From Candidatus Gastranaerophilales bacterium (GTDB taxonomy: Bacteria; Cyanobacteriota; Vampirovibrionia; Gastranaerophilales; Gastranaerophilaceae): a DNA stretch of 64,000 nucleotides. Both the position numbers and the translations under genes were made by a program. Each line of letters opens with the position of its first letter. Positions within the stretch are counted from its first letter, which is position 1. The notes under the pieces are model-generated. The model was not told the origin of the DNA and made no database searches. It worked only from the letters and a program-made list of their open reading frames with translations. Positions 1,716-61,920 of this stretch are shown in pieces. Location of the stretch: positions 45,634 to 109,633 of the forward strand of contig CALVHD010000002.1 in assembly GCA_944327245.1 (NCBI GenBank). Direction: 5' to 3'.

Positions 1716-3968
1716 TTACATACTTACTCTGTCTTTAATTTCTTCCATTTTATGGTCAGCAAGACGAGAATCGCCTTTTACTCTTGAATAAGCAAGATAA
1801 CCATTCATTCTGTCAATTTTTGTCAGATTTTTTGAACCGCATTTTGGACAAACATCCATATTTAATTCTTGATGTCCGCAATCATCACAATATGACAATG
1901 AAAGATTAACACCTTCATAAAATCCTTTTTTCATAGCACGTCTGATAAGCGTTTCGACTGCTTTAGTGTTGTATGAAATAGGATATTTTACATATTGGAT
2001 TTTTCCGCCATTCATCAAATCCCAAAATCTACCTTCTAAGTCTTGTTTTTCAATCGGACTAATTTGTTCAGAAACATGACAATGGAATGAATTAGATACA
2101 TAGGGCTTATCTGAAACGTTTCCGACTATGCCATATTTTTTTCTAAATTGTTTAACTTGTAAACCGCAAAGATTTTCAGCAGGAGTACCATACAAAGCAT
2201 ACAACCAGCCGTCTTCTTTTTTAAATTCGGCAACTTTTTTATTAATATATTCCATTACTTCAATAGCAAATGCGCCATCTTCAACCAAAGACTTTCCATT
2301 ATGAAGTTCTTGAAGTTCATTTAGAGCAGTTATACCAAATGATGCTGTTGCGGATTTTAAGAGCGGTTTGATTTTATCATGGAAACCTAAATGACCACCA
2401 TAAAAACCACCTTCACAATATGCAAGCGGATTAACTGAAGCTCTCATTTCTCCTAAATATTCATAAGTTCTTATATGAATTTTTCTGATTAAATTCATAT
2501 AGTAATCTAATACATCATAAAAATCTTTGCTTTCTTGTTTAGCTTTAGCATAAATCATAGGAAGATTTAAGCTTATTGCTCCGATATTAAAACGTCCCAC
2601 AAAAACAGGCTTGTCATTTTCATCAGCAGGCTCCATGCCGCCTCTTTCAAACCAAGGAGATAAGAATGCACGACAACCCATGGGGGACACAATTCTTTTA
2701 TATTTTTTATACATCTCAGCAACATAACCTTCACCTGACAAGCTTAACCAATCAGGATACATGGTTTTTTTAGAACATTCAACACCTGCCTTAAAAAGCT
2801 TTTCAAGAGGTTTACCTTCGCCGTGTAATTCTTCATCATATAAAAATACAATTTTAGGAAATAACACAGGCTTTTTGCATTCTTTTTTACCTTGTCCGTT
2901 TTGACGAGTTTTAAGACAAGCAAGCGTTGCCATAACTTCAAATTCGTTTTCACCAAGACCGGTTGTAACCGTAATAAAAGGATAATCACCACGAGATGAA
3001 GCAACAGTGTTGAATTTATATTCCCAACCTTGAAAACCTTGTTCAAAATCATTTTGAACATCTTTCATTGCTTCTTCTCTTGCTTTTTCAAATGATAGAC
3101 CCATACAAATATATCTGTCATATTGTCTGTCAAATGTCTTTTGAGCATACGGAGCTAAAATTTTATCCACTTCAGGAACGGTAAAACCACCATATTGTTG
3201 ACTTGCTGCAGCCATGACAATATCGCCTATAACATCAAAAGCGACATCAAGGCTTCTTGGTTCGTTATACCAAATGTTACCCATTTCAAAGCCGCCTTTT
3301 AACACAGCAGCAACATCAAACAAGCAACAATTCATTGTATCTCTTCTTGCAGACATATCATGAATATAGATATATCCTTCTTTTATTGCTTGTTTATCTT
3401 CAACTGTTAAGAAGAATTTTTTATATAATTCTTTATTTAATTCATTGAATATCAAAGAACGTTTTGTTGAAACTAAAGCAGAATCTGCATTGGCATTTTC
3501 TTTATCGCCGATATACATTATTCTTTGTGATTCTTGATATACTTTATCAAGCATTGAAACAAAATCAGTTTTATAGTTTCTGTAGTTTCTATAGCTTTCT
3601 GCTACTTTTGGACTAAGTGCTTGAAGTGCACTTTCAACAATATTATGCATCTGAATAATTTCAACTTCATCAGTATTCATTTCAAGAACAGATTTATTTA
3701 CAAAAGTGCAAATATCTTTAATTTCTTTATCTGAAAAAGTAACAAGCATTCTTGTCGCAGATTTTTTAATTGCGTCTATAACTTTTTCAATATTATATTT
3801 TTCTTTTGTTCCGTCTTTTTTAACAATGATGATATTATTCAAGGATCTTCTTGAAAAATTCAAAACATTTATAAGATTTTCACCGTTGTTTTTAATTGCA
3901 TCTGTAGCAGGTGAATGCGAATTTTGTGTTATTGGTATAGCACCTATATCGTTTGAAATCTTTTGCAT
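1716..3968 (-). CDS. nrdD: Anaerobic (class III) ribonucleoside-triphosphate reductase
   Basis: Makes deoxyribonucleotides without oxygen, using a glycyl radical. The 750 residues contain an N-terminal ATP-cone (about 45-140) and the barrel domain with RDTMNCCLFD. Near the C-terminus is a four-Cys metal site (C694, C697, C707, C710), then the glycyl radical loop RMNGYL with Gly723. The length is normal for the family. The ATG is preceded by AGGAGG (TAGGAGGAATTAATG), so the start is secure. nrdG follows downstream. Its presence points to strictly anaerobic DNA precursor synthesis; no aerobic reductase is seen in the window. Confidence 0.96.
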   Translation of the reverse strand: MQKISNDIGAIPITQNSHSPATDAIKNNGENLINVLNFSRRSLNNIIIVKKDGTKEKYNIEKVIDAIKKSATRMLVTFSDKEIKDICTFVNKSVLEMNTDEVEIIQMHNIVESALQALSPKVAESYRNYRNYKTDFVSMLDKVYQESQRIMYIGDKENANADSALVSTKRSLIFNELNKELYKKFFLTVEDKQAIKEGYIYIHDMSARRDTMNCCLFDVAAVLKGGFEMGNIWYNEPRSLDVAFDVIGDIVMAAASQQYGGFTVPEVDKILAPYAQKTFDRQYDRYICMGLSFEKAREEAMKDVQNDFEQGFQGWEYKFNTVASSRGDYPFITVTTGLGENEFEVMATLACLKTRQNGQGKKECKKPVLFPKIVFLYDEELHGEGKPLEKLFKAGVECSKKTMYPDWLSLSGEGYVAEMYKKYKRIVSPMGCRAFLSPWFERGGMEPADENDKPVFVGRFNIGAISLNLPMIYAKAKQESKDFYDVLDYYMNLIRKIHIRTYEYLGEMRASVNPLAYCEGGFYGGHLGFHDKIKPLLKSATASFGITALNELQELHNGKSLVEDGAFAIEVMEYINKKVAEFKKEDGWLYALYGTPAENLCGLQVKQFRKKYGIVGNVSDKPYVSNSFHCHVSEQISPIEKQDLEGRFWDLMNGGKIQYVKYPISYNTKAVETLIRRAMKKGFYEGVNLSLSYCDDCGHQELNMDVCPKCGSKNLTKIDRMNGYLAYSRVKGDSRLADHKMEEIKDRVSM

Positions 3969-59603: not shown

Positions 59604-60596
59604 ATGAAAAAATGTGTGGCAGTTGTTGGCTGTGGAATATGGGGTAAAAATATAGTCAGAAATTTCTATAATCTGGGCGCATTACACAGCGTATGCGATT
59701 TAGACAAAGAAAACCTTAAAATGATTAATGAGTTATATTCAGATGTTCAAACAACAAGTGATTTTGAAGGATTGTTAAATAATCCCGAAGTTAAGGCATT
59801 TTGTATTGTTACTCCAAGTCACACACATTTTTCGTTAGTTAGAAAAGCGCTTTTGGCTCATAAACATGTTTATGTTGAAAAACCAATTTCAACATCAAGC
59901 AAAGAAGCGCTTGAACTCAAAGAATTGGCAGAAAAAATGAATGTAAAACTGCTTGTCGGACATCTGCTATTGTATCATCCGGCCGTTAACAGATTAAAAA
60001 TGCTTATTGCGCAAGGAGTTTTAGGTGAAATAAAATATGCTCAATCAGACAGGTTAAATATTAACTATTTTAAAAACGATAGAAGTGTAATGTGGGATTT
60101 AGCACCCCATGATGTTTCAATGATTGCACATGTAACAGGAAAGGCGCCTCTAAAAGTATTAAATGCAGTTGGTGTAGCAAGCGAATTTGAAAATATTTTT
60201 GATATAACTCATCTTACAATTGAATTCGAAGATGGTTTAATAGGGCAAGTTTCAGACAGTTGGATTCATCCTCAGAAAAGAGTTGCCCTTCTGGTTAGAG
60301 GCACAAAAGCAACAGCAATATTAGATGACACACTGCAAGAAGGTAAATTAAAGGTTTATGATAACAAAAAAAATTCACAAAAAGATATTGAAATTTTTGA
60401 CTATTTAGAAATTGAACCTTTAAAATTAGAATGTCAGCATTTTTTAAATTGCATAGAGCATGATAAAACTCCTCGTTCAGACGGCGAAAATGGCTATATG
60501 ATAGTAAAAATTTTAGAAAGTGCTGAAAATATAATGCTTGGGTCTAAAAAAGAAGCACTGGATAATCACGAGTTTAAAATCTCCCGCAGTAAATAA
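59604..60596 (+). CDS. Gfo/Idh/MocA-family oxidoreductase
   Basis: 330 residues: Rossmann loop GCGIWG (9-14), the family motif VEKP (91-94) with the catalytic Lys, WDLAPHDVSMI, and an alpha/beta C-domain. Similarity in pattern to UDP-N-acetylhexosaminuronate dehydrogenases of surface polysaccharide pathways suggests a nucleotide-sugar substrate, which is inference. AGGAAA precedes the ATG. The stop is immediately followed by the structured RNA region. Confidence 0.88.
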   Translation: MKKCVAVVGCGIWGKNIVRNFYNLGALHSVCDLDKENLKMINELYSDVQTTSDFEGLLNNPEVKAFCIVTPSHTHFSLVRKALLAHKHVYVEKPISTSSKEALELKELAEKMNVKLLVGHLLLYHPAVNRLKMLIAQGVLGEIKYAQSDRLNINYFKNDRSVMWDLAPHDVSMIAHVTGKAPLKVLNAVGVASEFENIFDITHLTIEFEDGLIGQVSDSWIHPQKRVALLVRGTKATAILDDTLQEGKLKVYDNKKNSQKDIEIFDYLEIEPLKLECQHFLNCIEHDKTPRSDGENGYMIVKILESAENIMLGSKKEALDNHEFKISRSK

Positions 60597-60752
60597 CCCC
60601 AAGCAAACGAGCCTTAGTTCACAGGGTGAACTTGAATGCGTAAGCCAGAGTGAAGACCAAAACGAAGAGTTTTGGTCGTAACTGTTGATAGGCGACGTAA
60701 GAGTTTTGCTTTTTTGCAAAACTCCACAGGAGCAAAAGAGTGCAGCTTGGGG
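60597..60752 (+). ncRNA. Candidate structured RNA, unit 1
   Basis: The long-range stem CCCCAAGC (60597-60604) / GCTTGGGG (60745-60752) encloses three perfect hairpins. These are GTTCAC / GTGAAC (60617-60631), GACCAAAAC / GTTTTGGTC (60655-60677) and GAGTTTTGC / GCAAAACTC (60701-60724). A GC-GTAA-GC tetraloop-like spot is also present at 60639-60646. The last stem is flanked by GACGTAA and CACAGGAG. The stretch is visibly richer in G and C than its surroundings, with no credible reading frame. The layout is reminiscent of omega-RNA (HEARO) elements of IscB/IsrB loci, but no such gene is here. Strand is assigned tentatively. Confidence 0.55.
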
Positions 60753-60960
60753 CATAGGTGTGAAGAACCTTTGAAAGTCGAGTCTTAGTCCGACTGACTT
60801 AGACGAGAATAAAAAGGCGCAAGGATGTGAGCAATAGCACAGCAAGCGTTGAGCTTGGTGGGCTATTGCGACACTGGACTAAAGTGACGTAAGAATTTGC
60901 GCAAGCGCAAATTCCACAGGAACAGTTGTGACGGCAAGCGTTGAGCTTGGCGCAAAGCAC
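60753..60960 (+). ncRNA. Candidate structured RNA, unit 2
   Basis: Continues unit 1. Stems: GTCTTAGTC / GACTTAGAC (one mismatch, about 60782-60804) and GCAATAGC / GCTATTGC (60831-60869) enclosing CAAGC / GCTTG. Next come GAATTTGCG / CGCAAATTC (60893-60914) and a second CAAGC / GCTTG hairpin (60935-60949). The 60886-60922 part repeats the GACGTAA-stem-CACAGGA motif of unit 1 with a different stem sequence but the same pairing. The rest of the gap to 61065 is AT-rich and holds a CTTATTT / AAATAAG hairpin (60997-61014). Confidence 0.5.
60842..60950 (+). repeat. 17-nt direct repeat forming a small hairpin, two copies
   Basis: GCAAGCGTTGAGCTTGG occurs identically at 60842-60858 and 60934-60950; each folds as CAAGC-gttga-GCTTG. 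Confidence 0.8.
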
Positions 60961-61065
60961 TAAACAAAGACCCAATTCACATAATTAATTGCTTAACTTA
61001 TTTTAACAAATAAGCAAAATATTAAATTCAATATTTTTGTAAATTTGCATAACTAGAAGGACAAT

Positions 61066-61920
61066 ATGAAAATACAAAACAACACAATTAATTTTTGTCA
61101 TTCAAAATATGAAAATAAAGATAAACTACGGCCTGACAACAAAAAAATTACAGGCCAAGTACTTTCAGGTGATGAATTTTTCATCAACATGACCAACTAT
61201 GGAAAAAACTACCCATGGGAAAAATGCATGCAAGCAGTAACATATAACACATCAAAAGCAATCTCAAAAGGCATACCTTTTTCACTAATTTTAAAATATG
61301 TTGAATTTTGCGTAAATCAAATAAATATGTATTTATATGATTTTAATAAAGATTACGGGGTAAAAAGAAAATGCAGTCACTGTTTTAGAGTTAAAATCGG
61401 AAAAAGAGGAACAGAATACTATGAAAGGTACTACAGAAAAATCAACGCACTCGGCGAAAGTAATTGCTTTAACAAAGATATAACATATAGCCCAAAACCC
61501 AACAAAGAAAATAAAAACGCCAATACTTGCCAAATGACAATAACAGACTGGTATTTCTCACCCGTGCCGGTTATAGATATTTTCAATGAAGAACCAAAAG
61601 TTTATAAGATTTCAAATTTATCTTTAGCAAAAAAAGAATATAAAAGATTAAAAAAAATCAAAAATCCAACACTAAAAGACATTATGCGCACTTGTGCAAC
61701 AATTCAATGGCTCATTGCGCAAGAAACACCATATTTAAGAGGGAGCGATTCTATTGCTAATATTCTTACAAAATCAATAATGCACGCATACAATATCCGT
61801 ATTAGCCCCGTAAAAGAAGGAGTAAGCCTTGATTTTGAAGCATTTGACACAGATTTAGATGAATACATTGAAAAATATCCTGACTTTTTTAAAGAAAAAC
61901 CATGTAAAATCATAACATAA
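61066..61920 (+). CDS. Unknown protein with PYLRGSDSI motif
   Basis: 284 residues, no signal peptide or membrane helix. N-terminal 40 residues polar with INFCHSKY; a helical part (about 45-95); a Cys pair CSHC near 104-107; and a C-terminal helical region with WLIAQETPYLRGSDSIANIL and VSLDFEAF. The P-x2-RGS-x3-I pattern followed by a DxEAF-like segment recalls helical domains found in some bacterial effectors, a weak resemblance. AGAAGGA precedes the ATG. It lies between the structured RNA and the rRNA operon end. Confidence 0.55.
   Translation: MKIQNNTINFCHSKYENKDKLRPDNKKITGQVLSGDEFFINMTNYGKNYPWEKCMQAVTYNTSKAISKGIPFSLILKYVEFCVNQINMYLYDFNKDYGVKRKCSHCFRVKIGKRGTEYYERYYRKINALGESNCFNKDITYSPKPNKENKNANTCQMTITDWYFSPVPVIDIFNEEPKVYKISNLSLAKKEYKRLKKIKNPTLKDIMRTCATIQWLIAQETPYLRGSDSIANILTKSIMHAYNIRISPVKEGVSLDFEAFDTDLDEYIEKYPDFFKEKPCKIIT

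What the first reader, a model, noticed from the sequence alone, without database searches (positions are those of the whole stretch)
60694..60922. Duplicated RNA motif with compensatory base changes
GACGTAA-[9-bp stem]-CACAGG occurs at 60694-60732 and 60886-60922. The flanking single-stranded parts are identical but the stems differ at several positions, all compensated: GAGTTTTGC/GCAAAACTC versus GAATTTGCG/CGCAAATTC. The three bases after CACAG also co-vary (GAG versus GAA) and could pair with the stem's 3' arm (CTC, TTC), hinting at an alternative pairing. Such covariation within one locus is direct evidence of selection on RNA structure.
Basis: seen in the sequence. Interest (0 to 1): 0.72.

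Follow-up and report, generated by a model that had tools for sequence, protein, structure and literature searches.

The report
Roaming hairpin elements of uncultured bacteria
The two matching hairpins belong to a large family of small, likely mobile hairpin elements in bacteria of the group Gastranaerophilales, found mostly in the sense direction near the ends of genes, and also inside an RNA gene and in frame inside phage-type proteins, so they offer a natural test of how tiny DNA parasites might spread without harming their host.

Summary
In detail: GACGTAA-[9-bp stem]-CACAGG occurs at 60694 and 60886 with fully compensated stems. It is not a local RNA duplicate. Both are the right-hand hairpin (C) of a family of modular hairpin repeats: 31 DNA matches in this genome, C-model matches in 97 of 288 family genomes, 72 stretches in the species-genome collection, 44 titled Candidatus Gastranaerophilales. 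Stems change, a G-A/G-A internal loop stays: 353 of 353 cells paired in 30 copies, 66 changed on both sides. Elsewhere the unit is often a ~75-150 bp insert within a few bases of a stop codon, at tRNA, tmRNA or 23S rRNA ends, inside an RNase P RNA gene, or in frame inside two phage-type genes whose relatives lack it. Contacts with gene 3' ends or interiors are 29 sense, 6 antisense; in the window's genus the bias is weak. Best reading: a new family of likely mobile palindromic elements, comparable to Rickettsia palindromic elements; no mobilising enzyme was identified. Rare G-U pairs mean that the covariation alone does not prove selection on RNA.

The parts
60597..60752 (+). A' hairpin module starting directly after the stop codon of the oxidoreductase gene; closing arms CCCCAAGC 60597-60604 / GCTTGGGG 60745-60752, inner stem GTTCAC 60617-60622 / GTGAAC 60626-60631
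   Evidence: sequence, fold; uninterrupted relative in own genome at G000:C13 (L010)
60635..60737 (+). F-C unit apparently inserted into the A' module; GCGTAAGCC starts at 60638, ACAGGAGCAAAA ends at 60737; the left edge is uncertain by a few bases
   Evidence: comparison with the uninterrupted A' in L010; same right end at the phage-type gene inserts in L221, L166 and L195
60638..60693 (+). F hairpin: GCGTAAGCC..GACCAAAAC 60655-60663 / GTTTTGGTC 60669-60677..GATAGGC
60692..60733 (+). C hairpin, copy 1 (the finding): GC closing pairs, GACG, stem 60701-60709/60716-60724, CAGGA, GC
60768..60817 (+). A hairpin module CCTTT..CGAG..CGAG..AAAGG
60822..60880 (+). B2 hairpin module AGGATGTGAG..ACTGGACT
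   Evidence: R2 match 70 bits at G000:C2:106455-106513
60884..60923 (+). C hairpin, copy 2 (the finding): GT/AC closing pairs, stem 60893-60901/60906-60914
   Evidence: R1 match 65.9 bits
60926..60961 (+). truncated B-type module at the end of the array
   Evidence: similarity to CAAGCGTTGAGCTTGGCGCAAAGCAC in other arrays
59604..60596 (+). upstream gene, Gfo/Idh/MocA oxidoreductase; its stop codon abuts the array
   Evidence: Pfam PF01408

Best explanation
The two hairpins are copies of the right-hand module of a family of short palindromic repeat elements of Gastranaerophilales that are likely mobile, and the window holds one array of them in which one unit was likely inserted into another. 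Shown: the repeats are dispersed and modular; stems vary with compensation while the G-A/G-A internal loop stays; units interrupt two phage-type genes in frame and an RNase P RNA gene; they sit more often in sense than in antisense at gene ends. Inferred: units move or are copied as DNA (or via RNA) into transcribed regions, are tolerated because the transcript folds them out or is read through in frame, and grow into arrays by tandem duplication, nesting and recombination at the shared hairpin cores. The enzyme and route are unknown.
For: 31 DNA matches in own genome and matches in 20 of 28 genus genomes; C model in 97 of 288 family genomes, 25 of 41 genera; B model 30 times in own genome. 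Tandem copies with periods 99-101 and 157. Same gene end, different content: after the oxidoreductase gene G009 has another mosaic, G027 a remnant, and by eye most of the 28 genomes no array in the stretch printed. With/without comparisons: minor head protein 304 aa against 254 aa in an 81%-identity homologue; MuA-like transposase 671 aa against 646-650 aa in its eleven nearest homologues; inserts of the same type, judged by their peptide, at the same two sites in 4 of 103 and 3 of 117 listed homologues that the script could parse. Insert in the P12 region of RNase P RNA (helix name recalled). rpsM-rpsK spacer filled or nearly bare. Contacts with a gene's 3' end or interior 29 sense, 6 antisense, and with a gene's 5' end 16 sense, 2 antisense, in 68 flank clusters.
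Against: No target-site duplication could be fixed and no mobilising enzyme was identified; Y1_Tnp is absent from 26 of 27 genus genomes and RVT_1 from 15 of 27, both from the window's genome. No fresh insertion between near-identical strains was seen. Eight of 28 genus genomes gave no DNA match (some of them have C-model matches) and 191 of 288 family genomes no C match. In the long arrays of the window's genus the upstream gene is on the same strand in 20 and on the opposite strand in 15 of 46, and four arrays have a tRNA downstream on the opposite strand. In-frame inserts were found at only two sites and may be a few old events.
Confidence: 0.84

Rival explanations
1. Selected 3'-end RNA elements: the hairpins are kept because they stabilise or process the ends of abundant transcripts (a regulatory or protective RNA motif that spreads by recombination).
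For: Sense excess; of 18 hand-picked ORFs, 12 are host genes whose stop codon abuts a unit, and 8 of these are ribosomal proteins L3, S11, S13, S14, EF-G, GroEL (two insert types) or AtpD; also tRNA, tmRNA and 23S rRNA 3' ends. Conserved internal loop.
Against: In-frame inserts inside phage-type proteins and RNase P RNA, patchy presence between relatives and long arrays do not look like a conserved regulator; very few G-U pairs in C.
Confidence: 0.3
2. Locus-specific structured RNA duplicated in the window, with selection on the RNA fold.
For: Compensated stems and fold z-score -7.5.
Against: Dispersed repeats across the genome and family; array content differs at the orthologous site; no Rfam match.
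Confidence: 0.05
3. REP/REPIN-like or IS200/IS605-type repeats moved by a Y1 transposase.
For: Short dispersed hairpins with conserved feet, in clusters.
Against: Y1_Tnp in 1 of 27 genus genomes and in none of the array-rich ones G000, G007, G009, G018, G027; units also lie inside genes, unlike REP (recalled).
Confidence: 0.04
4. The covariation is produced by DNA hairpin repair: one arm is copied from the other by template switching, without any selection on structure.
For: Double changes far outnumber single ones (66 to 3 cells) and G-U pairs are 4 of 353 and 2 of 400 cells.
Against: Does not explain the G-A/G-A loop kept in 29 of 30 copies or the sense excess; may act alongside mobility.
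Confidence: 0.35

Closest known systems
Rickettsia palindromic elements (RPE)
   Same: Palindromic repeats of about 150 bp that insert in frame into open reading frames as well as elsewhere (passages of review PMC10969869 seen).
   Different: Other bacteria; composite of exchangeable hairpin modules with a conserved G-A/G-A loop; sense excess and abutment to gene 3' ends; long arrays; the in-frame cases found here are in phage-type genes. No sequence comparison with RPE was made.
Palindromic GC clusters / double-hairpin elements of mitochondrial DNA
   Same: Small hairpins that merge, shuffle and turn over; the passages seen name no enzyme of their own and lean to an RNA-mediated route (passages of PMC4478555 seen).
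   Different: Bacterial chromosomes and phage-type genes, larger and more modular, sense excess. Those clusters are flanked by short direct repeats, which I could not show here.
BOX/RUP/SPRITE repeats of Streptococcus pneumoniae
   Same: Repeats cluster and insert into one another (passage of PMC10969869).
   Different: No sequence comparison made; here A-B-C cycles at tRNA and tmRNA ends and F-C units after stop codons.
Translational bypassing inserts (phage T4 gene 60, Magnusiomyces mitochondria)
   Same: Inserts inside coding genes, in gene 60 with matched GGA take-off and landing codons; here GGA precedes the insert in both phage-type genes and ACA GGA lies near its end (passages of PMC5009743).
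   Different: The inserts here are open in frame, so bypassing is not needed and is untested.

Membership tests
Rickettsia palindromic elements | short palindromic repeat inserted in frame in open reading frames | tested here: met
   L195 (same locus L268), L221, L166, and by peptide seven database homologues
Rickettsia palindromic elements | sequence homology to an RPE family | not tested
   no RPE sequence was compared; a pattern for the C hairpin hit 72 stretches, none titled Rickettsia
MITE | target-site duplication | tested here: inconclusive
   the phage-gene inserts and the filled and nearly bare rpsM-rpsK spacers show no clear duplication
MITE | terminal inverted repeats shared with a full-length transposon | not tested
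   no autonomous relative was met in the loci read, but none was searched for as such
REP/REPIN with RAYT | Y1 transposase in the genome | tested here: not met
   0 in G000, 1 of 27 genus genomes; G000 is 97% complete, so a missing gene is possible
retro-element / group II intron derivative | reverse transcriptase in the genome | tested here: not met
   RVT_1 absent from G000 and G027, present in 12 of 27; no Rfam match at the locus
known structured RNA family (Rfam) | match above the family cut-off | tested here: not met
   no match at 60597-60961

The most novel reading that the evidence does not exclude
The elements move at the RNA level: they insert into abundant transcripts (tRNA, tmRNA, 23S rRNA, RNase P RNA, ribosomal protein, GroEL and EF-G messages), in sense and preferentially at 3' ends or loops, and are then copied back into DNA, so their insertion map is a fossil record of transcript abundance.
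Probability: 0.18. Interest if true: 0.92.

Novelty: new variant of a known kind. Interest (0 to 1): 0.66.

Why it matters
It adds a modular, non-coding, likely mobile hairpin family to the uncultured Gastranaerophilales, with a sense excess, units at the ends of translation and stable-RNA genes, and in-frame carriage in phage-type genes. It gives a tractable case for the old question of how palindromic elements without a known transposase (RPE, mitochondrial GC clusters) spread. It also warns that paired stem changes between repeats in one locus are not by themselves proof of selection on RNA.

Tried and rejected
Rfam at gathering and relaxed thresholds gave nothing at the locus itself (the one weak match, E 0.54, lies outside it). 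Y1-transposase and reverse-transcriptase drivers were tested and not supported for this genome. The 386-bp stretch was sought in 50,697 phage and 72,556 plasmid records (blastn, E 1e-5) without a match; of three viral-contig patterns one found nothing and two found the same two contigs. In the long arrays, mostly of the window's genus, orientation was near even: upstream gene same strand 20, opposite 15, none 11 of 46 arrays, with automatic gene calls. The stronger bias is in the wider set: of 39 non-tandem F units, 29 lie outside any ORF call, with the upstream gene on the same strand in 20, opposite in 4, none in 5; 9 are within 12 nt after a stop codon in sense, 0 in the mirrored antisense position. 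The 29:6 tally counts contacts, not independent events; one cluster can count in more than one class, and neighbouring genes can fall in one cluster.

Literature: Gastranaerophilales+repeat+hairpin 0 papers; Melainabacteria+palindromic 24 papers, of which only the ten listed titles and abstract starts were seen (gut-microbiota genetics); Gastranaerophilales+mobile element 1 paper, off topic by title and abstract start. So I found no print description, within those searches and that library only. Of the papers cited I saw passages; PMC2694212 was also looked at in passages and is not used.

The 8 of 12 genes: the 18 ORFs were picked by me; the background of about 4% is recalled and the class was chosen after seeing the list; S11/S13 are neighbours and GroEL counts twice, so the p-value is only indicative. 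Not counted as abutting host genes were six: two phage-type (L222, L289), three whose stop codon lies in element letters (L214, L167, L283) and one not abutting (L272).

Rows dropped: A3 uses 30 of the 54 distinct C copies. Left out were the TGGGAC, TGGAAAT and TTTCAAATTC stem types, which also fold into hairpins but align out of register, and a few near-duplicates; two regex artefacts had been dropped before the 54. The block list was cut in print; part of the rest was printed.

Full report
Observation. The window is part of a 1.70 Mb, 45-contig genome. The pattern scan of named species genomes found 72 stretches: 44 titled Candidatus Gastranaerophilales, 1 Candidatus Galligastranaerophilus, 7 Cyanobacteria, 19 untyped bacteria and 1 Clostridia. 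Contig lengths and positions identify several of the window's genus mates (for example G009, G018) with records of that scan titled Gastranaerophilales, so I place the window there.

What it is. A search of the window's own genome with the 386-bp stretch gave 31 matches, itself included; in 28 genus genomes 20 had matches. A BLAST collection from 55 loci gave 73 blocks (most were printed there or). They are arrays built from a few hairpin modules. By eye I call them A (CTTTT..CGAG..stem..CGAG..AAAAG), B (GGTGTG..CCGTACC, and B2 AGGATGTGAG..ACTGGACT), C (the finding), F (GCGNNAGCC..GATAGGC), D and E. Common orders are A-B-C, repeated, and F-C. Modules appear exchanged as units or fused in their shared hairpin cores.

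Covariation. C copies were picked by their flanking letters, without asking for a stem. In 30 copies 353 of 353 cells are paired, 7 of 12 pairs show changes on both sides, 66 cells in all; the shuffled mean is 18.4 cells, and slid controls fall to 25-48% paired. The measures that count pairs or pair types separate less from shuffles (8 of 500 and 208 of 500 reach them). A check set from other genera, 42 matches (37 distinct) in 40 stretches, gives 99.3% paired and 52 doubly changed cells (this alignment was fitted to the model and its members were found with it). B modules: 86.3% paired, 175 cells changed on both sides. The loop GA opposite GA is kept in 29 of 30 C copies; it would form tandem sheared G-A pairs (recalled, not tested). 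Pairs in C are nearly all Watson-Crick: 4 G-T of 353, 2 of 400. In B, G-T is 22, A-C 12 and other mismatches 90 of 745 cells.

Distribution. The C model matches in 97 of 288 genomes of the family and 25 of 41 genera. Outside the window's genus units are often single or doubled: tandem pairs with periods 99-101 in G187, G266, G249 and G230, and 157 in G184.

Where they sit. Of 18 ORFs picked for inspection, 12 are host genes whose stop codon is followed within a few bases by a unit: ribosomal proteins L3, S11, S13, S14, EF-G, GroEL twice (an F-C unit in L269, an A-B-C unit in L291), ATP synthase beta, an OmpH-like protein, a response regulator, a glycine-rich protein and a flagellar rod protein. 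tRNAs lie upstream in sense within 260 bases in 7 flank clusters and in antisense in none; in L009, L060, L071 and L079 the array starts at the tRNA end. Elements start at the 3' end of tmRNA (L287, L296) and of 23S rRNA (L267, before 5S), and lie just upstream of tmRNA (L293, L294, L272). In L148 the element is an insert of the RNase P RNA match (175.7 bits) in the P12 region (helix name recalled). Over 68 flank clusters (135 contexts), contacts with a gene's 3' end or interior are 29 sense (18 ORF ends, 7 tRNA, 4 within long ORFs) and 6 antisense; contacts with a gene's 5' end are 16 sense and 2 antisense; binomial p for 29:6 about 1e-4, indicative only because contacts are not independent and gene calls are automatic. 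One of the four long-ORF cases (L140, same site as L192) is better read as an element just before the start codon, where its AGGAG may serve as a ribosome-binding site. In the window's genus the bias is weak (20 to 15 of 46).

Insertion evidence. The Mu-F-like head protein of L195 has 304 residues; its nearest homologue P0001 has 254 and aligns without a gap except for the 50-residue insert after KKGWWG. Four more of 103 parsed homologues carry inserts of the same type there (120 of 1495 hits were listed). The MuA-like transposase of viral contig L221 has an insert after KDFAGG, as have L166 and 3 of 117 parsed homologues (120 of 915 hits listed). The three seen as DNA are open in frame. In the rpsM-rpsK spacer of one genus, relatives carry this element, other hairpin families, or an almost bare spacer (G159).

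The window. The A' module has closing arms at 60597-60604 and 60745-60752; in the same genome L010 shows the module uninterrupted. The window's version is split by an F-C unit ending ACAGGAGCAAAA, the same right end as at the phage-gene inserts. So copy 1 of the finding likely came in with that unit, while copy 2 is the C module of the array's own A-B2-C cycle. At the orthologous place G009 holds a different mosaic and G027 a remnant; G018's contig ends soon after, and by eye most others show no array in the stretch printed.

Mechanism. I favour mobile palindromic elements of the RPE type. Shown: dispersal, modularity, in-frame and RNA-gene inserts, sense excess. Inferred: movement, tolerance by folding out or read-through, growth by nesting and tandem duplication. 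Unknown: the enzyme. Y1 transposase and reverse transcriptase were not found in this genome.

Comparison and novelty. In-frame palindromic elements are known from Rickettsia, clustered repeats from pneumococcus (passages of PMC10969869), and merging hairpins from yeast mitochondria (passages of PMC4478555). The present family differs in modular build, fixed internal loop, sense excess and abutment to ends of translation and stable-RNA genes. I rate it a new variant of a known kind.

Noticed in passing
window 61066-61920 (+): The 284-aa protein downstream of the array has a weak C-terminal match to Pfam AvrB_AvrC (38.8 bits, cut-off 23.2); function here unknown.
   Followed up: no
L224, L226, L229-L232, L235-L237, L240, L242 (rpsM-rpsK spacer); also L011 about 3320-3500: A second, different hairpin repeat family beginning CGGATT or CGGATTT sits at the same place after the rpsM stop codon in several relatives; a similar repeat occurs in the window's own genome.
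   Followed up: partly
L287, L296, L079, L077, L012: Arrays next to tmRNA or tRNA ends are followed or preceded by a degraded copy of an RNA 3' end (GTTCGATTTTACGGACATTATCTCC or close to it), like an attachment-site duplication.
   Followed up: no
L293, L294, L272, L187: Units upstream of tmRNA lie between GGGGACGT and ACGTCCC, resembling the two ends of tmRNA brought together around the unit.
   Followed up: partly
L192/L140 and L222: The unit's AGGAGC ends 5-7 bases before the start codon of a phage-type gene, so the element may supply the ribosome-binding site.
   Followed up: no
L166, L221, L195: In both phage-type genes the codon before the insert is GGA and the insert ends with ACA GGA GCA AAA, recalling the matched GGA take-off and landing codons of T4 gene 60.
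   Followed up: no
   Followed up: partly
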